Shown here piece by piece: positions 38,114 to 51,469 of a stretch of DNA of 64,000 bases (within the stretch, counting starts at the first letter, position 1; every line of letters starts with the position of its first letter). Where the stretch lies: the NCBI GenBank assembly GCA_027486755.1, contig JAIXOM010000054.1:62001-126000 (forward strand). The letters run 5' to 3'. This DNA comes from Comamonadaceae bacterium. GTDB lineage: Bacteria; Pseudomonadota; Gammaproteobacteria; Burkholderiales; Burkholderiaceae_C. Made by a program: the position numbers and the translations under genes. The notes under the pieces are model-generated. The model was not told the origin of the DNA, searched no databases, and saw only the letters and a list, made by a program, of their open reading frames with translations.

Positions 38114-38464
38114 CTAGCTTTTTTGCCGCAGCCGGTTGGCCATGTACAGCTGCAGCAGCAGGGCCCGAAAGACGATGCGGCTGATGTCCGACTCCTTGGA
38201 CAGCACCTGCTGCAAGCCGGTGGCGGTGAGCTCCATGCACACCGTGTCGACCTTGGCGCGCGCGGTGGCGCTGCGCACGCCGCCGGCCAATATCGCCTGC
38301 TCACCAAAGGGCTGGCCAGGGCTCAAGGTGGCAAATACCTGGCCCGTCTTGCCGTCGAGCAACTCTACGCTGCCCTGCTTGATGATGTAGAGCTTATCGG
38401 CCACCTGGCCGGCATCAAAGAGATGAACGCCGGCGGCGAAACTGACGTCGGTAAAGGCGCTCAT
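38114..38464 (-). CDS. Stand-alone cyclic-nucleotide-binding domain protein, canonical cassette
   Basis: 116 residues that are essentially one cNMP-binding domain: VHLFDAGQVADKLYIIKQGS (beta roll with the conserved glycines) and the phosphate-binding cassette PFGEQAILAGGVRSATARAK, with Glu55 for the ribose 2'-OH and Arg64 for the cyclic phosphate. A short C-terminal helix follows. There is no DNA-binding, kinase or membrane domain, so binding must be read out through a partner. Its ATG overlaps the stop of the preceding gene (ATGA). It is last in the nine-gene cheA-to-CNB run that also encodes an adenylate cyclase and a phosphodiesterase, so cAMP is the likely ligand. Its partner is unknown. 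Confidence 0.85.
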   Translation of the reverse strand: MSAFTDVSFAAGVHLFDAGQVADKLYIIKQGSVELLDGKTGQVFATLSPGQPFGEQAILAGGVRSATARAKVDTVCMELTATGLQQVLSKESDISRIVFRALLLQLYMANRLRQKS

Positions 38465-38937
38465 TTGAGGGACTCCGGCACGGCACTGAGATTGAGGACG
38501 CGCATGACCGTGCCGCGGTTGATGCCGCGCAGGCCCGGATGGCAGCCGGTGAAGGCCTTGAGCGCCTTGAAGACGGGAATCACGCTGGCGGTGACCACCG
38601 TGACCGCGGTGGCGGTCATGTTGTGCGGCACATCGGCCAGACCCGCAGCCAGACCGATGACAGCGCCCGGCCCAACGCGGTAGCTCGCGCCATCGATCTG
38701 CACATCGAGCTCCCCCTGACGCACCACATAGGCGTCATGAGCGGGCTGACCCTGCATGCACAGATGGGTACCGGGCTTGAATGCGGCTGAGCCCAAGGAC
38801 AACTCGCTGACCAGCTGGTAATAGAGTCTGTCCTCGCTGCTCAGCCCCAGCTTCACATAGGCAGCCATCGCGTCCGGCGAGTAGGGCGGCAGGGAGCCCA
38901 TCGCTTCGACCTTGGCCAGGTCCACCGAAAAATTCAT
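38461..38937 (-). CDS. Cyclic-nucleotide-binding-like protein with degenerate cassette
   Basis: 158 residues from the ATG at 38937 (the upstream extension to 39099 overlaps the phosphodiesterase gene and looks non-coding). An N-terminal helical part (residues 1-50) is followed by a cNMP-binding-domain fold: FKPGTHLCMQGQPAHDAYVV, RQGELDVQIDG and GAVIGLAAGLADVPHNMTAT. At the phosphate-binding cassette the usual FGE is VIG-L and the Arg is His, so canonical cAMP binding is unlikely. It could be a pseudo-receptor or bind another ligand. It is coupled to the canonical CNB gene downstream, and the two may form a pair. Confidence 0.78.
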   Translation of the reverse strand: MNFSVDLAKVEAMGSLPPYSPDAMAAYVKLGLSSEDRLYYQLVSELSLGSAAFKPGTHLCMQGQPAHDAYVVRQGELDVQIDGASYRVGPGAVIGLAAGLADVPHNMTATAVTVVTASVIPVFKALKAFTGCHPGLRGINRGTVMRVLNLSAVPESLK

Positions 38938-38974
38938 GGGGCTAGAACTCACGGACAACTCCCTTGGGAATGAA

Positions 38975-39769
38975 TCACTGCAACTGCTCGGCAACCTGCT
39001 CGGGCATGGCCAAAGCGAGCGCCGCAGGGCTGGAAAAACGGATGGAGCGCAGGAACTGCGCGCGCCCTGCGGGCGTGGCGACGGTGGCATGGGCGGCAAA
39101 ACCTACGCGCTGCCATTCCTGCGCCAAGGCCTGGCTGAGATCGGGGCCAAAACGGGCGCTGGCGCTCAGCAAAATATCAGCCTCATTGAGCAGCACCTGA
39201 CACCAAGCCTGGTTCCAGGCAAAAGCCTGCTCAGCCACCTGGGCGTGGTTGTCGGGCACGGTCTGCGGATCGGTATGGAGGATCAGCGACTCAATGCGGT
39301 CACGCCAGGGCTCAGGCAAGCCGGCGGCGTACTGAGCCACGCTGCGCCAAGACCGCGACTCGATGTCAAAGCGCTGCTGGTTCACCCCGCCAGGATGGCC
39401 AAAGTCGTGGGCAGCGGCCGCTGCCAAGGTGGCCGCCGCCCAGGGGCGGGCTGCCTGATCGGCCGTCGGCCCGAGCACATGCAGCATGGTGGTGATGGTT
39501 AGCATCACATCGGCGGTGTGCAGGCGGTTGTGATAGCTCGGCTCGTCATCGGCGGGCAGGGCCTCCATGCCCAGGGCCACCGCCCGGGTGAAGTCGGTCA
39601 TGGCCTGCACCTCAGCCGTGGCACGAACATCGAGCGCCAGGCTGGTGATGCAGGTCTGAGCCACTGCGGGCAGGCCGGGCCAGTCCTGGGACCAGGAGCG
39701 CCGCAGCTCGGCGCAGGCCTGGGCCAGGCCGTCAAACCAACGCTCGGGGGTCAGCGGCAGGGTCTTCAT
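38975..39769 (-). CDS. Class I 3',5'-cyclic-nucleotide phosphodiesterase
   Basis: 264 residues carrying the class I (PDEase_I) catalytic pattern rare in bacteria: YHNRLHTADV (Tyr79-His80-Asn81, His84, Asp87), AHDFGHPGGVNQ (His121-Asp122, His125) and LILHTDPQTV with a downstream LLNEADILL (Asp198), giving the two-metal site. It would hydrolyse cAMP or cGMP to the 5'-nucleotide. There are no regulatory GAF or membrane segments. It lies immediately after the receiver-cyclase gene, overlapping it by ATGA, so synthesis and degradation enzymes are translationally coupled. Nucleotide preference cannot be set from sequence alone. Confidence 0.87.
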   Translation of the reverse strand: MKTLPLTPERWFDGLAQACAELRRSWSQDWPGLPAVAQTCITSLALDVRATAEVQAMTDFTRAVALGMEALPADDEPSYHNRLHTADVMLTITTMLHVLGPTADQAARPWAAATLAAAAAHDFGHPGGVNQQRFDIESRSWRSVAQYAAGLPEPWRDRIESLILHTDPQTVPDNHAQVAEQAFAWNQAWCQVLLNEADILLSASARFGPDLSQALAQEWQRVGFAAHATVATPAGRAQFLRSIRFSSPAALALAMPEQVAEQLQ

Positions 39770-40950
39770 GGCAGCACGCCCGCCGAAGCCGGGGGATTGA
39801 CGAAAAAGGTCTCGATCTCGCCGATGCCCTTGACGCTGACGCTGCCACGCGGCTCGAGCGCAAAGTGCTGGCTCAGATGTTGGGCGGTCGAGGGCGAAAC
39901 ATGCACACGACCGGGCGTGCCGGTTGACTCCATGCGGCTGGCCACATTAACGGTATTGCCCCAGAGGTCATAGGTGAACTTGTGCATGCCGATCACGCCG
40001 GCCACCACCGGCCCGCTGTTGACGCCCACCCGGATTTGCAGCTGCGTGCCATGCTGCTGGTTGATGCGGGCCATGGCATTGAGCATATCAAAACCGGCCT
40101 GCACCACCGCCACCGCATGATCAGGGCGCGGCTCGGGCACGCCGCCGACCAGCATGTAGCAGTCACCGATGGTCTTGATTTTTTCGACGCCCGCCGCGCC
40201 GACGATGGCGTCGAAATCCGAAAAAATCTGATCCAGGATTTCAACCAGGCGCTCGGCCGACAGCCCCTTTGACAGCTGGGTAAAGCCCACCAGATCGGCA
40301 AACAGCACCGAGACCTCAGGGTGAGCATCGGCAATGCGTTTCTCGCCGGCCTTCAGGCGCTGCGAGACCGAGCGGGGCAGGATGTTGAGCAGGAGGTTCT
40401 CGGTTTTCTCCTGCTCTTTCTCTAGCTGCTCGTGCTGCGCTTGCAATTGCTGGCGGCGCAGCAGCTCCATATCGCGCAGGCGCTTTTTCTCGATGGAGGA
40501 GGTCAGGCGTGCCTTGAGCAGCACCTGGCTGAAGGGTTTGGGCAGGTAGTCGTCGGCGCCCATTTCAATGCAACGCACCACATCTTCGATGTCCTGCCCG
40601 CCCGAAATCACAATCACCGGAAAGCCCTTGAGCTTTGGGTTTTGCTGCATCTGCTCGAGCACTTCCAGCCCGGTCATCTCGGGCATCTCCACATCGAGCA
40701 GCATCAGGTCGAAGGCTTCGTCTTGCAGGCGTTGCAAGGCCAGGCGGCCGTTGGCCGCCTCCTCGATCTGCTGCACACCGATCTGGCGCAGCGAGCGCGA
40801 GATGCCCATGCGCATCATCTTGCTGTCGTCAACCACCAGCAGCCGCGCTTGCTCCAGCATCTGGGCATTGCGCTGCTCGTTGCTCAAAGCCTGGCTTGGG
40901 GTATCGATGCTGGCGTCGATGGCGCGGGTGGGGGCTTCGTTGAGGTTCAT
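39766..40950 (-). CDS. Receiver domain-class III adenylate cyclase fusion
   Basis: 394 residues from the ATG at 40950 (the longer frame to 41136 is inside cheB). Receiver (about 36-155): Asp41-Asp42, phospho-acceptor Asp86 (LMLLDVEMP), Ser116, Lys138 (LPKPF). A charged coiled coil (about 155-185) and the NILPRSVSQRLK linker lead to the class III cyclase domain. Metal ligands are Asp219 (LFADLVGFT) and Asp263 (TIGDCYM); purine-specifying Lys259 and Asp328 (FTYDLWGNTVNVASR) predict ATP as substrate; Asn335 and Arg339 are the transition-state residues. All catalytic positions are present. It is 4 bp after cheB and takes the place of CheY in this che operon, so CheA phosphotransfer probably controls cAMP synthesis. 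Confidence 0.92.
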   Translation of the reverse strand: MNLNEAPTRAIDASIDTPSQALSNEQRNAQMLEQARLLVVDDSKMMRMGISRSLRQIGVQQIEEAANGRLALQRLQDEAFDLMLLDVEMPEMTGLEVLEQMQQNPKLKGFPVIVISGGQDIEDVVRCIEMGADDYLPKPFSQVLLKARLTSSIEKKRLRDMELLRRQQLQAQHEQLEKEQEKTENLLLNILPRSVSQRLKAGEKRIADAHPEVSVLFADLVGFTQLSKGLSAERLVEILDQIFSDFDAIVGAAGVEKIKTIGDCYMLVGGVPEPRPDHAVAVVQAGFDMLNAMARINQQHGTQLQIRVGVNSGPVVAGVIGMHKFTYDLWGNTVNVASRMESTGTPGRVHVSPSTAQHLSQHFALEPRGSVSVKGIGEIETFFVNPPASAGVLP

Positions 40951-40954
40951 GGTC

Positions 40955-42028
40955 TCAGGCGCTGAGCTGGTGAATCTGATCGACGATGAGCTCAGGCATG
41001 CGCTCGAGCGTGACCGACTTGTCGACCACGCCCAGCGCCACCGCCGCGCGCGGCATGCCGTAGACCACACAGCTGTCTTCATGCTCGGCCAGGTTGATGC
41101 CGCCGGCCCGGCGTATGGCCTGCATGCCTTGCGCACCGTCGCTGCCCATGCCGGTGAGTAAAACGCCCAAGGTGTGCTTGCCGGCCAGCTCCGCGGCGGA
41201 GCGAAACAGCACGTCGACCGCGGGCCGGCAAAAATGCACCGGCGGGCTTTGGGTCAGGCGGGTGCGATAACCACCGGCACCGGCGACCACCATCAGGTGG
41301 TAATTGCCCGGCGCAATCAAGCATTGGCCGGGCAGCACCGGTTCGTCGTTGACCGCCTCGCGCACCTCGTAGGGGCACAGCTCGTTCAGACGCTCGGCCA
41401 CCGCCTTGGAGAAAAAGGCCGGGATGTGCTGCACCACCACAATCGGCGGCAGCCCGGCCGGCAGGCTGGGCAGCAGGCTGCGCAAGGCCTCCACCCCGCC
41501 GGTGGAGGCGCCCACCACGATCAGCCGCCGCTCAACCGAGCCAGTGCCGACCCAGGCCGGTGCCCTTTTGAGCACAGGCGCTGCCGGCGCGGCGGGCACG
41601 ACGGGGAAGGCACCCGCCGGGCGAAAGCGTTTTTTGGCAGCATGCCCGGCCTTGATGTGAAAGGCCAGCTTGCCGGCCAGTGCGCCCACCGACATGCTGC
41701 CATCGGGTTTGGCCAGCACCTCGCTGGCACCAGCCTCCATGGCGTCCAGCGCAATCTGCGAGCCCTGCTGGGTCAGGGAGCTGATGACCACCACCGCAAT
41801 GGGCGAGCGCTCTTTTTGCAGCTGGCGCAAGTAGGTCAGACCGTCCATGCGCGGCATTTCCATGTCCAGGGTCATGACATCAGGCTGCAACCGGGCCACC
41901 TTGTCCATGGCAATCAGGGGGTCGTTGGCCACGCCCACCACCTCAATGTCCGGGTCGTGCGCCAAGGTGTCGGTGATGGTCTTTCTCACCAGCGCCGAAT
42001 CGTCCACCACAAGTACTTTAATAGGCAA
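40955..42028 (-). CDS. cheB: Chemotaxis methylesterase/glutamine deamidase CheB
   Basis: 357 residues. Receiver with phospho-acceptor Asp55 (VMTLDMEMPRMDGL), a linker rich in Pro/Ala, and the methylesterase domain with the catalytic Ser (VVGASTGGVEAL), His (VVQHIPAFFSKAVAERL) and Asp (LTGMGSDGAQGM). It removes methyl groups from receptor glutamates, the adaptation arm opposite CheR. It stands 15 bp after cheR and 4 bp before the receiver-cyclase gene. Confidence 0.96.
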   Translation of the reverse strand: MPIKVLVVDDSALVRKTITDTLAHDPDIEVVGVANDPLIAMDKVARLQPDVMTLDMEMPRMDGLTYLRQLQKERSPIAVVVISSLTQQGSQIALDAMEAGASEVLAKPDGSMSVGALAGKLAFHIKAGHAAKKRFRPAGAFPVVPAAPAAPVLKRAPAWVGTGSVERRLIVVGASTGGVEALRSLLPSLPAGLPPIVVVQHIPAFFSKAVAERLNELCPYEVREAVNDEPVLPGQCLIAPGNYHLMVVAGAGGYRTRLTQSPPVHFCRPAVDVLFRSAAELAGKHTLGVLLTGMGSDGAQGMQAIRRAGGINLAEHEDSCVVYGMPRAAVALGVVDKSVTLERMPELIVDQIHQLSA

Positions 42029-42043
42029 TGAAGTCTCCTGAGC

Positions 42044-42916
42044 TCAAGGCGAGCCTGGGCGCTGATAGATGCCATTGCCCAGACTGAGCAAGGAATGCTT
42101 GATGCGCAGCAGGCTGTCAGAATGGCCGGCAATCAGATACCCGCCCGGCTCCAGCGCATCATGCAGGCGCTGCACCAGTTGGGTCTGCGAGGCCAGCTCG
42201 AAATAAATCAGCACATTGCGGCAAAACACCAGGTGCTGGGGCATCGCGACGGTGTAGCTGTCGGCAAACAAGTTCATGCGCTGAAACTGTACCTTGTGCT
42301 GCAGCTCGGGCTTGACCTTGCAAAAGCCGTCGTAGGGGCCGGTGCCCTTTTGGAAATACTTCTTGAGCAGGCCCGGATGCGGCAGGCCCAGGCGCTCGAT
42401 CTCGTAGATGGCCTTCTGGGCCTTTTTCAGCGCCCGGTGCGAGATGTCGGTCGCCTCGATTTGCCAGCGCAAATCCGGCTGTTTTTGCTCGGCATACTCG
42501 GCCAGGGTGATGGCCAGGGTAAAGGCCTCCTCACCGCTAGAGCAACCGGCTGACCAGCAGCGCAGGGCCCGGCGCGCGCTCGGGCTGCGCGAGAGCAATT
42601 GATCGAGCAACTCGGACTGCAGAATTTCAAACTGCACCGCCTCCCGAAAAAAGTGGGTGTGGTTGGTCGAAACCAGGTCGATCAGGATCTCGATCTCATC
42701 GGCCCCCTGCGCCAGCAGCCAGTCCAAATAGCCGTCCCAATCCTCAAAGCCCAACTCCCGGCGGCGCTTGCTCAGACGGCTGCTGAGCAGAGTGATCTTG
42801 TTGGGCCCTAAATAGATGCGGCTGTGCCTGTGTATCAAGGCACACAGTTGGTCGAAAATTTCTGGCGACATCGGGCCATCCCGATGTGCCCGAGTTTGCG
42901 CAGCCGCAGCGACCAT
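42044..42916 (-). CDS. cheR: Chemotaxis protein methyltransferase CheR
   Basis: 290 residues from the ATG at 42916, 4 bp after the mcp stop, with AAGGA upstream; other ATGs at 42964 and 42871 are possible. N-terminal helical domain (FDQLCALIHRHSRIYLGPNK), then LVSTNHTHFFREAVQFE, the SAM-binding CWSAGCSSGEEAFTLAI and the VFCRNVLIYFE motif. It methylates receptor glutamates using SAM. It lies in the cheA-cheW-mcp-cheR-cheB order. Confidence 0.95.
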   Translation of the reverse strand: MVAAAAQTRAHRDGPMSPEIFDQLCALIHRHSRIYLGPNKITLLSSRLSKRRRELGFEDWDGYLDWLLAQGADEIEILIDLVSTNHTHFFREAVQFEILQSELLDQLLSRSPSARRALRCWSAGCSSGEEAFTLAITLAEYAEQKQPDLRWQIEATDISHRALKKAQKAIYEIERLGLPHPGLLKKYFQKGTGPYDGFCKVKPELQHKVQFQRMNLFADSYTVAMPQHLVFCRNVLIYFELASQTQLVQRLHDALEPGGYLIAGHSDSLLRIKHSLLSLGNGIYQRPGSP

Positions 42917-42920
42917 CGCC

Positions 42921-44585
42921 TCAGAAGTCCTTGAAGTGGCGGTCTCCGTCAGCCTCGGGCGCATTGAGCTTGGGCTTGCCCTGGTGCGCCAGGCCGTGCT
43001 CTGTATTCGGCCGCTCCACTGTCACCTTGGCGCCGGCGCTGCGCTGCGGGCGCGGGGCCAGGCGGGTAAGGCTGGACAGTGCTTGGCCCTCGTCGCCGTC
43101 CTCGCTGTGGCGGCGCTTGAGCTTGAAGCCCACCACCTCGATGCCCTGCTCGACCAGGCTTTCCGCTTCGCGCGCCTGGTCATGGGTCTGCTCGGCCGCA
43201 TGGGCGATCTGGCTGGCACTGTCGGCCGCATCCTGCGCCACCTTGCTCATCTGCTCAATGGCGATGCCCACATGTTCAATGCCCTGGGCCTGCTCGCGTG
43301 CGGCCATGGTGATCTCGGCGACCAGCGCATCGGTGCGGGCGATCTTGGTCTCAATCTGGCTGAGCGACTCCTGCACCTTCTGCAGCGAGACCGCGCCGGT
43401 GCGGCTGCTGCGGATGGAGGCCTCAATCTTGTCGGCCGACTCATGCGCGGCGGTGGCGCTGCGCTGGGCCAGCGAGCGCACCTCGTCAGCCACCACAGCA
43501 AAGCCGGCGCCCGCCTCGCCCGCGCGGGCGGCCTCGACCGCCGCGTTGAGCGCCAGGATATTGGTTTGAAAGGCGATCTCGTCGATGCTCTTGACGATCT
43601 TGGCCACGTCACTGCTCGAGCGCTCAATGGCCTCCATCGCGGCGGTCATCTGCGCCATGTTGGAGACGCCCTCTTGCGCCGAGGAGCGGGTCTCCGAAGC
43701 CAATTGCTTGGCCTGCTCGGCGTTGTTGGCCGTCGAGTGAATCATGCTGGAGACCTCCTCGAGCGAGGCGCTGGTCTCTTCGATGGCCGCCGCCTGCTCG
43801 CTGGCGCCCTGGGCCAGCTTCTGGCTAGCCAGGGTGAGTTGACTGGAGGCGCGGCGGCTCTTTTCTGTGCCCTCATAGATGTTGCGGGCCACACGGGTCA
43901 GCGGCTTGATCGACACCCGGTAAGCGACGAAGCCGAGCACCAGGCCTATGGCCAGCCCGCCGAGGGCCAAGGCCACGATGCTCAAAATCACCTGCCGCTT
44001 TATCTGAGCGGCCTGGTCCAGCGTCTCGCGCGTACTGGCATTGGTCTTTTGGACCAGCGCATCAACGGCCTTGCGATGCGCTTCGTAGGCCTCTGACATC
44101 TGCTCGTATTCAGCGCGAATCTTGGCCAACTCGCCACTGTCGAGCACCGGCAGGAAGTTTCGGTTCAGTATGGAGAAATAGCGCCTGACATACTTGTCGG
44201 ACTCTTCGAGCAGGGGCACAAGCCGCATGTCCGTCAAAGCGCCTTTGGCGAATTGCTGGTAGGTATCGCTGTACTCTTTTTCCAGGCGAGGTACCTGAGC
44301 GATCAGGCGCTTACCCTCGGCCGTGCCAGAGATCTGTGTCGTTCCGCTGATGGTCGCCTGTGCCACGCTGACCATGACGGTGGTCACCATATAGTGCGTC
44401 TCGATCAAGTAGGCCGGCGGCGGTAGCACGGCTGCCAACAGATCCTTCTCATGGGCAATCTGGTTATAGAGTTGGCCGCCTATGCGGATTGGCTCGGTCA
44501 GGTAGTAGCTCAGCGTGGGGATTCCCGCCAGGCTACCCAGAAACAAGAGTGCAAAACCCGCCACCAGTTTTTTCAAATTTAGCAT
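42921..44585 (-). CDS. Methyl-accepting chemotaxis protein
   Basis: 554 residues: TM1 (about 7-27), a helical periplasmic sensor of about 170 residues resembling four-helix-bundle domains, TM2 (about 203-225), a short HAMP-like linker ([15 protein letters not shown]) and a long coiled coil with the invariant hairpin tip [20 protein letters not shown]. It is the only receptor in the operon and presumably feeds the local CheA. After the coiled coil there is a flexible tail of about 60 residues ending HFKDF. That fits the loose CheR-tether pattern x-aromatic-x-x-aromatic, although not the classical NWETF. Ligand unknown. Confidence 0.95.
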
Positions 44586-44611
44586 TGCTCAAGCCCCCAA
44601 GGTAAGTTCAT

Positions 44612-45124
44612 TCAAGCTTCTGCGCTGCGCCCGCTGATGGCGCGCAGGTCAATCTGTCCGACATAGCTGAGCAGGCGGTCGATGTCGAGCACCGTCTTGA
44701 CCGTGCCTTTGCTCTTGGCCATGCCCACAATGAAGCGCGCGTCGATGGCGTCGCCAAAGTCTGGTGGCGGCTCGAGGTCGTCGGCCTGAAAATGCGAAAC
44801 TTCCTCGACCACATCGACAATCATGCCGGTCAGGCGGCTCGCGCCCTCGCCGCTATCGACCTGCACCACCACAATGCAGATGCGCTCGCTGTCCTCGCAG
44901 GCGCCCAATCCAAATCGCTCGCGCAGATCGACCACCGGCACGATCTTGCCGCGCAGATTGATCACGCCTTTGATGTAAGCTGGCATGCGCGGCACCGGCG
45001 TTACAGGGCACAGGCGCATGATTTCTCGCACCTTGAGCACAGGCACGCTGTAGCGCTCCTGGGCCAATGCAAAGGTCAGGTACTTGCCGGCGATGGGCAG
45101 GTTTTCGGCGAGTGTGGGAGTCAT
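44612..45124 (-). CDS. cheW: Chemotaxis coupling protein CheW
   Basis: 170 residues from the ATG at 45124. A single CheW domain: YLTFALAQERYSVPVLKVRE, PAYIKGVINLRGKIVPVVDL and RERFG, with MIVDVVEEVSHF and the C-terminal TVKTVLDIDRLLSYV. It links CheA to the receptor tips. The frame upstream to 45178 overlaps cheA and is not family-like. Confidence 0.95.
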   Translation of the reverse strand: MTPTLAENLPIAGKYLTFALAQERYSVPVLKVREIMRLCPVTPVPRMPAYIKGVINLRGKIVPVVDLRERFGLGACEDSERICIVVVQVDSGEGASRLTGMIVDVVEEVSHFQADDLEPPPDFGDAIDARFIVGMAKSKGTVKTVLDIDRLLSYVGQIDLRAISGRSAEA

Positions 45125-45155
45125 GGGGTCTGTGCCTTTAAAGCGTGGGGGTGCT

Positions 45156-47339
45156 TCATGCGCTGAGGGCCGGCGCACTGGACAACTGGCTGACCGCGTC
45201 GGGGTCGATGATCAAGGCCACCCGGCCGTCGCCCAATATTGCGGCGCCCGACATGCCCTGCTGGTTTTGAAAGGTCTCGCCCAGGGACTTGATGACCACC
45301 TCTTGCTTGCCAATCAGGCTGTCGACCAGCAGGGCTCGGCTGCGGGCGCCCGAATCGACCACCATGACGATCCCCTGGCAAGGGTCGCTCACCTCGGTGG
45401 CAATGCCCAGCTTCTCCGACAGCCGCACCAGGGGAATAAGTTTGTCGCGCACGGTGATCACCTCGCCCTTGCCCTGCACCGTCGATACCATGTTGGGCTG
45501 CGGCCTGAGTGACTCGCGGATGGCCAGGGTCGGCAAGATAAAGCGCTCCTGGCCCACGCCCACCAACATGCCGTCGATGATGGCCAGCGTCAGCGGCAGG
45601 AAGATCTCGAAGGTGGTGCCCTCGCCCGGCGCCGAGGAAATGTCGATACGGCCGCGCAGGCGGGCAATGTTGCCGCGCACCACGTCCATGCCCACCCCGC
45701 GGCCGGAGATGTCGGTCACCGTCTCGGCCGTTGAGAAGCCGGGCAGGAAGATCAGATTGAAGATGCTCTTGTCGGTCAGCGTTTCTTCGGCGCTGACCAG
45801 CCCTTTTTGCAGGGCCTTGGCCAAGATGCGCTGTGAGTCCAGGCCGCGGCCGTCGTCGCGCATGCGGATCAAAATGCCGCCGCCCTGGTGCATGGCGTGC
45901 AGATAGATATTGCCCTGCGCGCTTTTGCCGACCGCCTCACGCGCAGCCGGCGTTTCGACGCCGTGGTCGACCGCGTTGCGCATCATGTGCAGCAGGGGGT
46001 CGGCCAGCTCCTCGACGATGTTGCGGTCCAGCTCGGTGTCTTCGCCACTCAGATGCAGCTGTACCTGCTTGTTCTGCGCGGTGGCCAGGTCGCGCACCAG
46101 CCGGGTCATCTTTTGGAAGGCCGAGCGTATCGGGACCATGCGCAAGGACATGGCATTGCGCTGCAAATCGGTGGTGATGCGTGAGAGCTGGCGCAAATGG
46201 CGCTCAAGCTCGCGGTCGCGTTGCTCCTGCACCAGCTTGTGCTGAACCACCATGGACTGGGCAATCACCAGCTCGCCCATCAGGTCGACCATGGCGTCGA
46301 GTTTGCGAGTGTCGAGCTTGACATAGCTCGCCAGTGCTTCGCTGCGGGCAGCCGCTGCCACCGGCGCCTTCGGAGCAGGCTCTTGCGCGGCGGAGGCTTT
46401 GCTGGCTGGTGCTTGAGCTTGAGCTGGGGGCGGGGGCGGGGGCGGCGAGGCAGCTACCGGGGGACTTTCGAGCGCAGGTGCAGGTGCAGGTGCAGGGGAC
46501 AGTGCGGGGGCAGGGGCAGGGGCGGCCGCCGGTGCAGGCACGGGCTCGCCATGCAGGCAGGCCTCAACCCGGCGCAGCAGGTCGCCCGTGGCGACCTGTA
46601 TCGGCTGGCCAAAGCCTTCCCCACCGAGCTGGCGGGCGATTTCGGTGACGTACTGCTGCAGCGCATCGCCGCCGGCCAGGATCAGCTCAATGACCGTCTG
46701 GGTAATGGGCAGCTGGTCCCGGCGGGCGGCGTCGAGCAAGGACTCGAGTTGGTGGGCCAGTTGCTGAATAGGCTCTATGCCCAGGAAGCCGGCGCCACCT
46801 TTGAAGGTGTGAAAGGCCCGGAACACCTGATTGAGCGTGTCTTTGTGGCGGGGGTTTTCTTCCAGCACCAGTACGCCCTGCTCGACCTGGCCGAGCAAAT
46901 CACGGCCTTCATTACAAAACTCGTTGAGCAACTCCAGGTCATCATCGGCGCTGATGAAAAAGCGCCCAACGACGCCGGCTTCGGATTCGGAGTCGTCCTG
47001 CAGCGCTGACGCATGGGCAGGCTCAGGTGCAGGGGTCGCTTCAGTTGCAGCCCGCGGTTTGGCCAGGTACAGGGCATTGGCCATGCGCTCATAAGAGGAC
47101 TGCAGTTGTTCAATTTGCTGCGCGTCCAGACCTTGGGACGCGCTTGAAGCCTGCTCGCACAGCGCGATGGCGGCGGCCAATTCGTGCAGGGCTTCTGGCG
47201 ATACGGGTGTCTCGGGCGCTCGCTCCAATTGCCGCAAGCTGCTGGCGATCGCATCCAGGCCTTGGACGCTGGCTGGCGCCAGAAAAGCCATTTCAGTCGC
47301 TAAAGCCTGCAGCAGTGTTTCTACTTTAGGATCCACCAT
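45156..47339 (-). CDS. cheA: Chemotaxis histidine kinase CheA
   Basis: 727 residues from the ATG at 47339 (9 codons shorter than the longest frame; GGGTGGGTGG lies upstream). An unusual N-terminal helical region of about 110 residues precedes the Hpt/P1 domain with phospho-acceptor His177 (FRAFHTFKGGAGFLG). A Pro/Ala-rich linker (about 265-335) stands where a P2 CheY-docking domain would be; I see no P2. Then come P3, the P4 ATPase (LLHMMRNAVDHGVE, MRDDGRGLD, SGRGVGMDVVRGN) and the P5 CheW-like domain. First gene of the cluster; its phospho-targets in the operon are CheB and the receiver-cyclase. Confidence 0.95.
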   Translation of the reverse strand: MVDPKVETLLQALATEMAFLAPASVQGLDAIASSLRQLERAPETPVSPEALHELAAAIALCEQASSASQGLDAQQIEQLQSSYERMANALYLAKPRAATEATPAPEPAHASALQDDSESEAGVVGRFFISADDDLELLNEFCNEGRDLLGQVEQGVLVLEENPRHKDTLNQVFRAFHTFKGGAGFLGIEPIQQLAHQLESLLDAARRDQLPITQTVIELILAGGDALQQYVTEIARQLGGEGFGQPIQVATGDLLRRVEACLHGEPVPAPAAAPAPAPALSPAPAPAPALESPPVAASPPPPPPPAQAQAPASKASAAQEPAPKAPVAAAARSEALASYVKLDTRKLDAMVDLMGELVIAQSMVVQHKLVQEQRDRELERHLRQLSRITTDLQRNAMSLRMVPIRSAFQKMTRLVRDLATAQNKQVQLHLSGEDTELDRNIVEELADPLLHMMRNAVDHGVETPAAREAVGKSAQGNIYLHAMHQGGGILIRMRDDGRGLDSQRILAKALQKGLVSAEETLTDKSIFNLIFLPGFSTAETVTDISGRGVGMDVVRGNIARLRGRIDISSAPGEGTTFEIFLPLTLAIIDGMLVGVGQERFILPTLAIRESLRPQPNMVSTVQGKGEVITVRDKLIPLVRLSEKLGIATEVSDPCQGIVMVVDSGARSRALLVDSLIGKQEVVIKSLGETFQNQQGMSGAAILGDGRVALIIDPDAVSQLSSAPALSA

Positions 47340-47667: not shown

Positions 47668-48531
47668 ATGATCCCACCGCAGTTTGATTACCACGCGCCT
47701 CAGACCGTTGGCGAAGCGATCGCCTTGCTCCAGCAACTGGGCCCGGACGCCAAGCTACTGGCCGGCGGCCACAGCCTGCTGCCGATGATGAAGCTGCGCT
47801 TTGCTCAGCCGTCTCACCTGATCGACATTCATCGCATCCCCGAGCTGCGCGGCATCAAGCAAGAGGGGCAGACCATCGTGATCGGCGCCATGACCACCGA
47901 AAACGAGCTGATCGGCTCCGAGCTGCTGCAGCGCCACGTGCCGCTGCTGCCAGAAGCGGCCCAGCTGATTGCCGACCCGCAGGTGCGCAACCGCGGCACC
48001 ATCGGTGGCGACATCGCCCACGGCGATCCGGGCAACGACCACCCCGCCTTGTCGATTGCGCTCAACGCCTCGTTTGTGCTGGAGGGCCCGGGCGGACGCC
48101 GCACGGTGGCGGCCGACGGATTTTTCCTGGGCACCTACATGACGCTGCTGCAGGAAGAGGAAGTCATGTGTGAAATCCGTGTCCCGGCTTTCGCCCAGGG
48201 CACAGGCTGGGCTTATGAAAAGCTCAAGCGCAAGACCGGCGACTGGGCCACCGCCGGCTGCGCGGTGGTGATGCGCAAGAGCGGCAACACCGTCTCCGAG
48301 GTGCGCATTGCGCTGACCAACGTCGGGCCGACCGCGCTGCGCGCAGAAAGCGCCGAGCAGGCCCTGCTGGGCAAGGAGCTGAGCGTGGCCAACCTGCAAG
48401 CGGCGGCTGACGCGGCCTGCGCCATCTGCGACCCCGCCGAAGACCTGCGCGGCGACATTGAATACAAAACCGCGATGGCCGGCCAAATGGTCAAGCGCGC
48501 CCTGGTCAAGGCCTTTGGCCGCTGCGCATAA
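47668..48531 (+). CDS. coxM: Carbon monoxide dehydrogenase medium (FAD) subunit
   Basis: 287 residues of the xanthine-oxidase-family flavoprotein subunit: [16 protein letters not shown], the FAD pyrophosphate-binding [17 protein letters not shown] (about 32-48) and [14 protein letters not shown] (about 111-124), and a C-terminal domain with [20 protein letters not shown]. It passes electrons from the Fe-S subunit to quinone. It has an excellent ribosome-binding site (AGGAGGT) and is first in the cox operon, in the standard M-S-L order. Confidence 0.95.
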
Positions 48532-48554
48532 ACACTTTTTTCAGGACAAGCATC

Positions 48555-49043
<489 letters not shown>

Positions 49044-49057
49044 AAGGAGACAGCACC

Positions 49058-51469
49058 ATGAATGCACCCGCACAAACCGCCGAAGCCCGCGAACTGGCCC
49101 TGGCCGGCATGGGCGCCTCGCGCCTGCGCAAAGAAGACGCCCGCTTCATCCAGGGCAAGGGCAATTACGTCGACGACATCAAGATGGCCGGCATGCTGCA
49201 CATGGACATCGTGCGCGCGCCGGTGGCCCATGCCCGCATCAAGAAGATCAACAAGGAGGCCGCGCTGGCCATGCCTGGCGTGCACGCGGTGCTGACGGCC
49301 GAAGACCTCAAGCCCCTCAAGCTGCACTGGATGCCCACCCTGGCCGGTGACGTGCAGGCCGTGCTGGCCGACGGCAAGGTGCACTTCCAGATGCAGGAAG
49401 TGGCCATCGTGATCGCTGACGACCGCTACATCGCCGCCGACGCGGTCGAGGCGGTCGAGGTCGAGTACGAGGAACTCGAAGCCGTGGTCGACCCCTACGC
49501 CGCGCTGCAGCCCGGCGCGCCTGTGATCCGCGAAGACTTGGCCGGCAAGACCGAGGGCGCGCACGGCAAGCGCGAGCACCACAACCACATCTTCACCTGG
49601 GACGCCGGCGACAAGGCCGCCGCCGACGCGGCTTTTGCCAATGCCCCGGTGACCGTGACCCAGCACATGCACTACCCGCGCGTGCACCCCTGCCCGCTGG
49701 AGACCTGCGGCTGCGTGGCCAGCTTTGACCCGATCCGCGGCGAGCTGACCACCTACATCACCAGCCAGGCGCCACACGTGGTGCGCACGGTGGTGAGCAT
49801 GCTCTCGGGCATTCCGGAATCCAAGGTGCGCATCGTCAGCCCCGACATCGGCGGCGGCTTTGGCAACAAGGTCGGCGTCTACCCCGGCTATGTCTGCGCC
49901 ATCGTGGCCTCCATCGTGCTGGGCAGGCCCGTGAAATGGGTGGAAGACCGGATGGAGAACATCTCCTCGACCGCCTTTGCCCGCGACTACCACATGGACG
50001 GCGAGCTGGCCGCCACGCCCGACGGCAAAATTTTGGGCTTGCGCGTGAACGTGGTGGCCGACCACGGCGCCTTTGACGCCTGCGCCGACCCGACCAAGTT
50101 CCCCGCCGGTCTGTTTCACATCTGCTCGGGCTCTTATGACATCCCGGCCGCGCACTGCTCGGTCAAGGGCGTCTACACCAACAAGACGCCGGGCGGCGTG
50201 GCCTACCGCTGCTCCTTCCGCGTGACCGAGGCGGTCTATCTGATCGAGCGCATGGTCGACGTGCTGGCGCAAAAGCTGAACATGGACAAGGCCGAGATCC
50301 GGGCCAAGAACTTCATCCAGAAGGAGCAGTTCCCCTACACCAGCGCCTTTGGCTTTGAATACGACTCGGGCGACTACCAGACGGCCCTGAGCAAGGTGCT
50401 GGACGCGGTGGACTACAAGGCGCTGCGCGCCGAGCAGGCCGCCAAGCGGGCCGATCCCAACAGCCCCACGCTGATGGGCATTGGTCTTGTAACCTTCACC
50501 GAGGTGGTGGGCGCGGGCCCCTCCAAGATCTGCGACATCCTGGGCGTGGGCATGTTCGACTCCTGCGAGATCCGCGTGCACCCCACCGGCAGCGCGATTG
50601 CGCGCATGGGCACCATCACCCAAGGCCAGGGCCACCAGACCACCTATGCGCAGATCATCGCCACCGAGCTGGGCATTGCGTCGGAAGTGATCCAGGTCGA
50701 AGAAGGCGACACCTCGACCGCGCCTTATGGCCTGGGCACCTACGGCTCGCGCTCCACGCCCGTGGCTGGTGCCGCCATTGCCATGGCAGCCCGCAAAATC
50801 CACGCGAAAGCGCGCAAGATCGCCGCGCACATGCTGGAAGTCAACGAAGCCGACCTGGACTGGGAAGTGGACCGCTTCAAGGTCAAGGGCGACGACAGCA
50901 AGTTCAAGACCATGGCCGAGGTGGCCTGGCAGGCCTATCATCAGCCGCCGGCCGGCCTGGAACCCGGCTTGGAGGCGGTGCACTATTACGATCCGCCGAA
51001 CTTCACCTACCCCTTTGGTATTTACCTGTGCGTGCTCGACATCGACCGCGCCACCGGCGAGACCAAGGTGCGGCGCTTTTACGCGCTCGACGATTGCGGC
51101 ACCCGCATCAACCCCATGATCATCGAGGGCCAGATCCATGGCGGCCTGACCGAAGGCTTTGCGGTGGCCATGGGCCAGCAGATGCCTTACGACGCGCAGG
51201 GCAACCTGCTGGGCAACACGCTGATGGACTACTTCCTGCCCACCGCCGTGGAGACACCCAAATGGGAGACGGACCACACGGTAACGCCCAGCCCGCACCA
51301 CCCCATTGGTGCCAAGGGTGTGGCCGAATCACCGCATGTGGGCTCCATCCCGACCTTTACTGCCGCCATCGTGGACGCGTTTGCGCACAAGGGCGTGACC
51401 CACCTGGACATGCCGCACAGCGCGTTTCGGGTCTGGAAGACGCTCAAGCAGCTCGACCTGGCCCTTTGA
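49058..51469 (+). CDS. coxL: Form I carbon monoxide dehydrogenase large (Mo-Cu) subunit
   Basis: 803 residues from the ATG at 49058 (AAAAGGAGA upstream). The diagnostic active-site loop reads VAYRCSFR, with Cys385 in the position of the copper-binding Cys388 of Oligotropha CoxL. This is the form I (true CO dehydrogenase) signature, not the AYRGAGR of form II. The catalytic Glu is Glu757 (GAKGVAESPHVG). Other molybdopterin-binding segments include IGGGFGNKVGVYPG, QGQGHQTTYAQI and TYGSRSTPVAGAA. The enzyme oxidises CO to CO2 with quinone or other acceptors. Confidence 0.96.
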   Translation: MNAPAQTAEARELALAGMGASRLRKEDARFIQGKGNYVDDIKMAGMLHMDIVRAPVAHARIKKINKEAALAMPGVHAVLTAEDLKPLKLHWMPTLAGDVQAVLADGKVHFQMQEVAIVIADDRYIAADAVEAVEVEYEELEAVVDPYAALQPGAPVIREDLAGKTEGAHGKREHHNHIFTWDAGDKAAADAAFANAPVTVTQHMHYPRVHPCPLETCGCVASFDPIRGELTTYITSQAPHVVRTVVSMLSGIPESKVRIVSPDIGGGFGNKVGVYPGYVCAIVASIVLGRPVKWVEDRMENISSTAFARDYHMDGELAATPDGKILGLRVNVVADHGAFDACADPTKFPAGLFHICSGSYDIPAAHCSVKGVYTNKTPGGVAYRCSFRVTEAVYLIERMVDVLAQKLNMDKAEIRAKNFIQKEQFPYTSAFGFEYDSGDYQTALSKVLDAVDYKALRAEQAAKRADPNSPTLMGIGLVTFTEVVGAGPSKICDILGVGMFDSCEIRVHPTGSAIARMGTITQGQGHQTTYAQIIATELGIASEVIQVEEGDTSTAPYGLGTYGSRSTPVAGAAIAMAARKIHAKARKIAAHMLEVNEADLDWEVDRFKVKGDDSKFKTMAEVAWQAYHQPPAGLEPGLEAVHYYDPPNFTYPFGIYLCVLDIDRATGETKVRRFYALDDCGTRINPMIIEGQIHGGLTEGFAVAMGQQMPYDAQGNLLGNTLMDYFLPTAVETPKWETDHTVTPSPHHPIGAKGVAESPHVGSIPTFTAAIVDAFAHKGVTHLDMPHSAFRVWKTLKQLDLAL

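What the first reader, a model, noticed from the sequence alone, without database searches (positions are those of the whole stretch)
38114..47339. Chemosensory operon whose output is a complete cAMP circuit
Nine co-directional, tightly spaced or overlapping genes run cheA, cheW, mcp, cheR, cheB, receiver-adenylate cyclase, class I phosphodiesterase, degenerate cNMP-binding protein, canonical cNMP-binding protein. The sequence shows all catalytic residues of the cyclase and phosphodiesterase and of one cNMP receptor. Known chemosensory systems of the alternative-function class (e.g. Pseudomonas Chp) influence cAMP through a separately encoded cyclase. Here the cyclase carries the receiver itself, and writer, eraser and readers are co-encoded with the kinase. 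I infer a signal pathway MCP to CheA to receiver-cyclase to cAMP to small CNB proteins, with CheR/CheB adaptation and PDE reset. I do not recall a described system of this composition.
Basis: partly seen in the sequence, partly recalled or inferred. Interest (0 to 1): 0.9.

Follow-up and report, generated by a model that had tools for sequence, protein, structure and literature searches.

The report
cAMP-making chemotaxis operon in flagellated bacteria
A bacterium related to Comamonadaceae wires its only chemotaxis-like sensor array to an enzyme that makes the messenger cAMP, with the enzyme that destroys it and proteins that may read it in the same operon, and related genomes suggest that this circuit steers the flagellum where E. 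coli uses the protein CheY.

Summary
Nine minus-strand genes at 38114-47339 run cheA-cheW-mcp-cheR-cheB-Rec/adenylate cyclase-class I PDE-CNB1-CNB2. Active-site residues of receiver, cyclase and PDE, and the cAMP pocket of CNB2, are conserved in relatives.

The set recurs and is rearranged. The same core order occurs in Comamonadaceae/Limnohabitans MAGs (with PDE and both CNBs) and in MAGs labelled Chloroflexota and Verrucomicrobiota (core only). Two other CheA lineages also carry the Rec-cyclase.

New here: it looks flagellar, not "alternative function". The own genome has one CheA, one MCP, one class III cyclase, a flagellar cluster and no CheZ hit. In 15 of 16 carriers with a CheA call, every CheA lies in a Rec-cyclase operon; all 16 have FliM, 15 lack CheZ. 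In one genome the operon sits in a flagellar region where no single-domain CheY was found.

Best reading: a chemotaxis pathway whose output is cAMP, probably standing in for CheY. Catalysis, phosphotransfer and the CNB target are untested, and CheY was not searched genome-wide. Rec-cyclase regulators in chemosensory clusters were already catalogued, so this is a new variant, not a new kind.

The parts
45156..47339 (-). cheA: Hpt, dimerisation, HATPase, CheW domains; no CheY-binding P2 domain found
   Evidence: Pfam; P2 (PF09078) was found in one same-genus flagellar CheA control and not in another control, L103
44612..45124 (-). cheW coupling protein
   Evidence: Pfam CheW 2.4e-37
42921..44585 (-). 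mcp: receptor with two hydrophobic stretches (by eye), signalling domain aligned to E. coli Tsr over equal length; conserved C-terminal HFKDF tail
42044..42916 (-). cheR methyltransferase
   Evidence: Pfam CheR 2.3e-50
40955..42028 (-). cheB receiver-methylesterase (TTG start)
   Evidence: Pfam; NCBIfam PRK00742 over cut-off
39766..40950 (-). receiver - linker - class III adenylate cyclase
   Evidence: Pfam Response_reg 2e-29, Guanylate_cyc 2.7e-63; invariant phospho-acceptor and catalytic residues in 9 of 9
38975..39769 (-). class I (PDEase_I) phosphodiesterase, short form
   Evidence: Pfam 3.8e-07, best solved relatives PDE7A/PDE4, metal-site residues in 18 of 18
38461..38937 (-). CNB1: degenerate cyclic-nucleotide-binding domain with conserved C-terminal stretch
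   Evidence: Pfam 1.7e-10; alignment of 10
38114..38464 (-). CNB2: stand-alone CNB domain with canonical cAMP pocket
   Evidence: Pfam 1e-18; E55 and R64 in 13 of 13; best solved relatives PKG/PKA-R

Best explanation
A chemotaxis array whose response regulator is an adenylate cyclase. The MCP/CheW/CheA array senses a signal. CheA phosphorylates the receiver of the cyclase (and of CheB), which changes cAMP synthesis. The PDE removes cAMP, keeping the signal short. CNB2 binds cAMP and, with its probably non-binding partner CNB1, carries the signal to its target. CheR and CheB reset the receptor. In flagellated carriers this is usually the only chemosensory system found and CheZ is usually not found, so the cAMP circuit most likely does the job of CheY at the flagellum, perhaps by CNB1/CNB2 acting on the motor or its switch. 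Shown: gene content, conserved active sites, repeated linkage, sole-CheA status in the searches made, presence of flagellar genes, absence of CheZ hits. Inferred: enzyme activities, phosphotransfer, CNB1-CNB2 pairing, the flagellar target.
For: Linkage: the full nine-gene order in L040 and L041; the same order cut by contig ends in L039, L042 and L043; core without PDE/CNB in L044-L046. Other orders: CNB1/CNB2 divergent from a cheA-W-mcp-R-B-cyclase-PDE set in G577 and G508; CNB1-CNB2-PDE before mcp-cheA-W-B-R-cyclase in G417; receiver-cyclase-mcp-W-R-B-receiver-cheA with CNB1-CNB2 beside it in G551, G234 and G245; CNB-PDE divergent from mcp-cheA-W-B-R-cyclase in G757. CNB2- and CNB1-like domains lie in one protein in G386 and G551. 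Three CheA groups carry the one Rec-cyclase family, and the cyclase groups largely match them. Flagellar link: own genome 1 CheA, 1 MCP, 1 class III cyclase, a FliM and a flagellar cluster, no CheZ. Of 18 carrier genomes, 16 have CheA and FliM calls (the same 16); 18 of their 20 CheA calls lie in Rec-cyclase operons, the other 2 being in G136; 1 of 18 has CheZ, again G136. G757: the operon lies between flhA and a flagellin gene in 78.7 kb rich in flagellar genes, where the only receivers found are CheB, the Rec-cyclase and a 507-aa protein; its FliM as called lacks an E. coli-like N-terminal CheY-binding peptide. No receiver of single-domain size in the flagellar stretches fetched from 10 other carriers (G000, G577, G234, G417, G508, G386, G551, G245, G788, G787), while 2 of 3 control stretches gave CheY.
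Against: No wet-lab data. CheY was not searched genome-wide, so an unlinked CheY could exist; the third operon layout itself encodes two single-domain receivers. All 10 type-B FliM sequences I printed (of 11 type-B carriers) begin with an LLSxEELxAL-like peptide that resembles the CheY-binding one, so something may still bind there. Operon and flagellar cluster are on different contigs in the own genome. No sigma-28-type match above chance before the window's cheA; of 17 operon upstream regions scored (two of them the same locus) only G577 stood clearly above shuffles, but 3 of 4 reference regions also failed, so the test is weak. CRP route not excluded: of five CRP/FNR-type proteins in the own genome, L036 keeps a Glu and an Arg at CRP-like spacing (without the following Ser/Ala) and L034 has Asp in place of Glu plus Arg-Thr. 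CyaA-type cyclases were not searched. G136 has the operon beside canonical CheY/CheZ. L044-L046 show no CNB or PDE in the stretch held, and lack of CheZ is expected outside Proteobacteria (recalled). G245 had no PDE hit. G453 and G660 have the PDE and a type-B FliM, but also CheZ, and no Rec-cyclase was seen there.
Confidence: 0.52

Rival explanations
1. Alternative-function system: the array sets cAMP, which changes gene expression or lifestyle through cAMP readers, not the motor. Flagella are merely co-inherited.
For: A multidomain response regulator is the hallmark of ACF systems (PMC3447774, passages). A CNB-histidine kinase with canonical pocket exists in the own genome (L031), and two of five CRP/FNR-type proteins keep part of the pocket (L034, L036). 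G757 adds a SulP-STAS-CNB protein after the cyclase. No sigma-28 match before cheA (weak test).
Against: None of the five CRP/FNR-type proteins has the full pocket signature of CNB2. It is the sole CheA found in a flagellated genome, and 15 of 16 carriers with a CheA call have no CheA outside Rec-cyclase operons. Operon inside a flagellar region in G757.
Confidence: 0.28
2. Two-branch system: CheA phosphorylates an unlinked CheY for motor switching and the Rec-cyclase as a parallel branch; cAMP tunes something else.
For: CheY was not searched across the genome; type-B FliM keeps a CheY-peptide-like N-terminus (10 of 10 seen); the third operon layout carries two single-domain receivers.
Against: No CheZ hit; no P2 domain found in this CheA or in six related ones, one of them cut by the stretch (P2 is also missing in control L103); no single-domain-size receiver in fetched flagellar stretches.
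Confidence: 0.15
3. The Rec-cyclase is a phosphate sink or catalytically silent, and the cAMP genes are hitch-hikers.
For: None found beyond the lack of assays.
Against: Invariant catalytic residues in 9 of 9 cyclases, metal-site residues in 18 of 18 PDEs and pocket residues in 13 of 13 CNB2-type domains; repeated linkage in different orders.
Confidence: 0.05

Closest known systems
Pseudomonas Wsp system (WspR, Rec-GGDEF) (recalled)
   Same: Chemosensory operon whose response regulator is a nucleotide-messenger cyclase
   Different: Makes c-di-GMP, no co-encoded eraser and readers, not the cell's only chemosensory system
Pseudomonas Pil-Chp / CyaB (recalled)
   Same: Chemosensory system that changes cAMP
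   Different: Cyclase separately encoded and without receiver; reader is the transcription factor Vfr; acts on type IV pili
Rec-mononucleotidyl cyclase regulators in CheR-TPR clusters (PMC3447774, passages read)
   Same: Receiver fused to a nucleotide cyclase in a chemosensory cluster
   Different: Listed as one domain type in the passages read; there the CheR carries TPR repeats, here Pfam found no TPR in CheR; no PDE or CNB in the passages
E. coli flagellar chemotaxis (CheA/CheY/CheZ)
   Same: The window's CheA group joins the E. coli and same-genus flagellar CheA in a 14-row branch, support 100/98 (no ACF reference included); receptor signalling domain of Tsr length; sole system found in a flagellated genome
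   Different: No CheZ hit, no P2 domain found, no CheY found in the stretches examined; output regulator is a cyclase
Cyanobacterial CyaC (recalled)
   Same: Receiver-controlled class III adenylate cyclase
   Different: Driven by its own hybrid kinase, not by a chemoreceptor array

Membership tests
ACF (alternative cellular function) chemosensory systems | Multidomain response regulator with enzymatic output | tested here: met
   Rec-cyclase; criterion as worded in PMC3447774 (passages)
ACF (alternative cellular function) chemosensory systems | Output other than flagella or pili | tested here: inconclusive
   Sole CheA in a flagellated genome and flagellar neighbourhood in G757 point the other way
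ACF (alternative cellular function) chemosensory systems | CheA falls in the ACF class of the published scheme | not testable with these tools
   Class models not held; the source paper is not held; my tree had no ACF reference row
Canonical flagellar chemotaxis (E. coli type) | CheZ phosphatase | tested here: not met
   No PF04344 match in G000; 1 of 18 carriers has one
Canonical flagellar chemotaxis (E. coli type) | Single-domain CheY | tested here: inconclusive
   None in the window's operon or in fetched flagellar stretches; not searched genome-wide
Canonical flagellar chemotaxis (E. coli type) | CheA P2 CheY-docking domain | tested here: not met
   No Pfam match; control L162 has it, control L103 does not
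Canonical flagellar chemotaxis (E. coli type) | Only chemosensory system of a flagellated genome | tested here: met
   1 CheA, 1 MCP, FliM and flagellar cluster
Class III adenylate cyclase | Two metal Asp, adenine-selecting Lys/Asp, transition-state Asn/Arg (roles recalled) | tested here: met
   Invariant in 9 of 9; aligned with AC5
Class I cyclic-nucleotide phosphodiesterase | HxxxH and HD metal site | tested here: met
   H80, H84, H121, D122, D198 in 18 of 18
Class I cyclic-nucleotide phosphodiesterase | Invariant purine-clamp Gln | tested here: inconclusive
   Candidate Q238 is Q in 5 of 18; register uncertain without a structure
cAMP-binding CNB domain | Glu and Arg of the phosphate-binding cassette | tested here: met
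   CNB2: 13 of 13; CNB1 does not have them

The most novel reading that the evidence does not exclude
A second way to do flagellar chemotaxis: the receptor array talks to the motor through a diffusible nucleotide, cAMP, made by a CheA-phosphorylated cyclase, erased by a dedicated PDE and read by a CNB1/CNB2 pair at the motor, replacing CheY and CheZ. Its core has spread between Burkholderiales, Chloroflexota and Verrucomicrobiota, and the cyclase has been joined to at least three different chemosensory lineages.
Probability: 0.33. Interest if true: 0.93.

Novelty: new variant of a known kind. Interest (0 to 1): 0.8.

Why it matters
The flagellar chemotaxis pathways that I know of end in a phosphorylated CheY at the motor. 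If this operon is the flagellar pathway of these bacteria, a diffusible second messenger replaces that protein, which would change expectations for speed, gain and noise of the response and would explain how flagellated bacteria without CheZ steer. It also offers a compact bacterial cAMP circuit (writer, eraser and reader under one array) that can be tested gene by gene in environmental isolates.

Tried and rejected
Sigma-28 promoter as proof of flagellar control: a recalled consensus was scored on 17 regions upstream of the operons (L041 and L109 are the same locus, so 16 distinct) plus 4 reference regions; only G577 stood clearly above shuffles among the operons and only one of the 4 references did, so I do not use it. 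Chance or artefact: rejected because the gene set recurs in separate assemblies and in different orders. Mis-binned MAG as source of the cross-phylum operon: not excluded for L044 (title says Akkermansia muciniphila), less likely for L045/L046, two near-identical operons in records of different projects; binning was not tested. For that reason I lowered the best explanation from 0.55 to 0.52 and the novel case from 0.35 to 0.33 and raised the alternative-function rival from 0.25 to 0.28. Class I (CyaA-type) cyclases were not searched. Structure prediction was off, so folds of PDE, CNB1 and the receptor's sensor domain rest on sequence. Limits: the genome search scored at most 8, 6 and 4 first-look candidates per genome, so those counts are lower bounds; the same-genus genomes G393, G492, G565, G628 and G686 lacked a PDE match but I know of no search of them for the Rec-cyclase; G453, G660 and G639 have the PDE but no Rec-cyclase was seen there; the PDE match in G365 is weak (9.4e-4). 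In G789 and G245 the operon is broken by contig ends inside cheW and is taken as one operon by inference only.
Full report
What is there. Start sites that fit the spacing are cheA 47339, cheW 45124, mcp 44585, cheR 42916, cheB 42028 (TTG), Rec-cyclase 40950, PDE 39769, CNB1 38937 and CNB2 38464. Cyclase-PDE and CNB1-CNB2 overlap by 4 nt. The operon ends 2 nt from a convergent gene. Terminator-like and promoter-like matches in the region are no more than chance.

Active sites. In nine aligned Rec-cyclases the receiver acid pair, phospho-Asp and Lys, and the cyclase metal, adenine and transition-state residues are invariant (roles recalled). The catalytic part aligns best with mammalian adenylate cyclases, and the receiver matches PleD and CheY. 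The PDE hits PDE7A and PDE4 over its metal-site part, and five metal-site residues are invariant in 18 of 18 homologues; the Gln expected to clamp the purine is not (Q in 5 of 18). CNB2 resembles PKG and PKA-R domains and keeps the pocket Glu and Arg in 13 of 13 related domains. CNB1 lacks both but conserves a C-terminal stretch. In G386 and G551 a CNB2-like domain is followed by a CNB1-like domain in a single protein, which suggests that the two small proteins work as a pair.

How common and how conserved. The PDE was found in 6 of 300 genomes of the order and 11 of 399 of the family (one of them weak), own genome included in both. Among 399 genomes of the order, 91 had a match to the Rec-cyclase alignment at E up to 1e-50, most over the cyclase part only; 5 had E below 1e-160 (G000, G136, G234, G245, G757). 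A scan of named genomes gave 15 loci, of which 8 match over most of the Rec-cyclase. Five are Comamonadaceae, Limnohabitans or Polaromonas MAGs at 78-86% identity, with the nine-gene order complete in two (L040, L041) and cut by contig ends in three (L039, L042, L043). Three are labelled Verrucomicrobiota (L044) and Chloroflexota (L045, L046) at 60-61% identity; they keep the order cheA-W-mcp-R-B-cyclase, followed by unrelated genes. The other 7 loci match over the receiver part only.

Rearranged versions. In G577 and G508 CNB1-CNB2 stand divergent from cheA-W-mcp-R-B-cyclase-PDE; G508 has two mcp genes, and in G577 the mcp is spread over two ORFs. In G417 the order is CNB1-CNB2-PDE, then mcp-cheA-W-B-R-cyclase. 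G508 and G551 have a further mcp-cheA-W-B-R-cyclase operon. In G551, G234 and G245 a third layout, receiver-cyclase-mcp-W-R-B-receiver-cheA, has CNB1-CNB2 beside cheA; in G245 it is pieced from two contigs by inference. G386 (no mcp seen in it) and G136 share most of this layout. G757 has CNB-PDE divergent from mcp-cheA-W-B-R-cyclase, followed by a SulP-STAS-CNB protein. A tree of 25 CheA puts the carrier CheA in three well-supported groups; in a tree of 18 Rec-cyclases the groups largely match, except that the G577/G508 pair sits apart. The program warned of long branches, so deep joins are unsure. The window's CheA group joins the E. coli and same-genus flagellar CheA (14 rows, 100/98); no ACF reference was in the tree.

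The flagellar link. The own genome (100% complete by the tool) has one CheA, one MCP, one class III cyclase, a FliM, and a cluster with motAB, fliS, fliA, flhA, fliMNOPQR and flhB (L062). It has no CheZ match. It also has five T2SSE-type ATPases over the cut-off, so pili are not excluded as a target. I searched 26 genomes by handle: 18 carriers, 5 same-genus genomes without a PDE match, and 3 with the PDE but no Rec-cyclase seen. Of the 18 carriers, 16 have a CheA call and the same 16 have FliM; G786 and G790 have neither (in both, the operon seen lacks cheA because the contig ends). Of 20 CheA calls in carriers, 18 lie in Rec-cyclase operons (G789 and G245 by inference across contig ends); the other 2 are in G136, the only carrier with CheZ. 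Eleven of the 16 FliM share a shorter Pfam match (starting at model position 13-15, 'type B'); the ten of these placed in a tree separate from E. coli, the same-genus control, G757 and G792 with support 1.000. Type-B FliM also occurs as a second copy in G453 and G660. The same-genus flagellated genomes G565, G628 and G686 have a longer FliM match, CheZ and an E. coli-type CheA; G393 and G492 have no FliM, and their only CheA lies in a very long frame (2072 and 2051 aa). In G757 the operon lies between flhA and a flagellin gene, inside four adjoining stretches (570.1-648.8 kb) rich in flagellar genes, whose only receivers found are CheB, the Rec-cyclase and a 507-aa protein. No receiver of single-domain size was found in flagellar stretches of ten other carriers; of three control stretches, two (L160, L162) gave CheY and one (L149) gave none.

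Against. All 10 type-B FliM printed keep an N-terminal peptide like the CheY-binding one. No sigma-28 match was found in front of the window's cheA, though the test also failed on 3 of 4 reference regions. CheY was not searched genome-wide. The operon and flagellar cluster are on different contigs in the own genome. G136 keeps a canonical system beside it. L044-L046 show no PDE or CNB near by. G245 had no PDE match.

Readers of cAMP. Nine CNB proteins were found in the own genome: CNB1, CNB2, a CNB-histidine kinase (L031), five CRP/FNR-type factors and a DUF294 protein. Besides CNB2, only L031 has the full canonical pocket signature; among the CRP/FNR-type factors L036 keeps the Glu and an Arg, and L034 has Asp and Arg-Thr; the others keep neither pattern. 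A CRP route is less likely from sequence but not excluded.

Mechanism. Receptor signal sets CheA activity; CheA-P feeds the Rec-cyclase and CheB; cAMP rises or falls; the PDE shortens the signal; CNB2 with CNB1 carries it on. The receptors end in a conserved F-K-D-F/Q tail (8 of 8), reminiscent of the NWETF tether for CheR/CheB in E. coli (recalled), so methylation adaptation is likely intact. That the target is the flagellum is the inferred step with the best indirect support; that CNB1/CNB2 touch the motor is a guess.

Known work. PMC3447774 (passages only) lists Rec-mononucleotidyl cyclase among regulators of CheR-TPR clusters and treats ACF systems as a diverse superfamily. PMC5907407 (passages only) had nothing relevant. 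Ten library searches gave no account of a Rec-cyclase/PDE/CNB chemosensory operon or of cAMP as a flagellar chemotaxis output; apart from those passages I saw search listings only, and the main classification paper is not held. Wsp, Chp and CyaC are recalled.

Noticed in passing
L099:10138-12276 (G757): SulP-STAS-CNB protein directly after the Rec-cyclase: a possible cAMP-gated transporter.
   Followed up: partly
L031:712-1878 (own genome, contig C56): CNB-histidine kinase with canonical cAMP pocket: a second possible cAMP reader.
   Followed up: partly
L062 and relatives L135, L138-L142, L145, L147, L165: A flagellar system shared by carriers, with FliM much diverged from the same-genus type; possibly transferred as a unit; a second FliM of this type in G453 and G660.
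   Followed up: partly
L044, L045, L046: Core operon in MAGs labelled Verrucomicrobiota and Chloroflexota, 60-61% identical in the cyclase, suggesting transfer between phyla.
   Followed up: partly
window 42924-42938 and alignment A3: Receptor C-terminal HFKDF pentapeptide, F-K-D conserved in 8 of 8 receptors, like the CheR/CheB tether of E. coli receptors (tether recalled).
   Followed up: no
window 47668-51469: Divergent upstream genes look like a molybdenum hydroxylase set of the CO/xanthine dehydrogenase type (from the ORF translations; name recalled).
   Followed up: no
L166:5971-6825 (G245): A further 284-aa CNB protein, matched by both CNB2 and CNB1, near the separate CNB1-CNB2 pair.
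   Followed up: no
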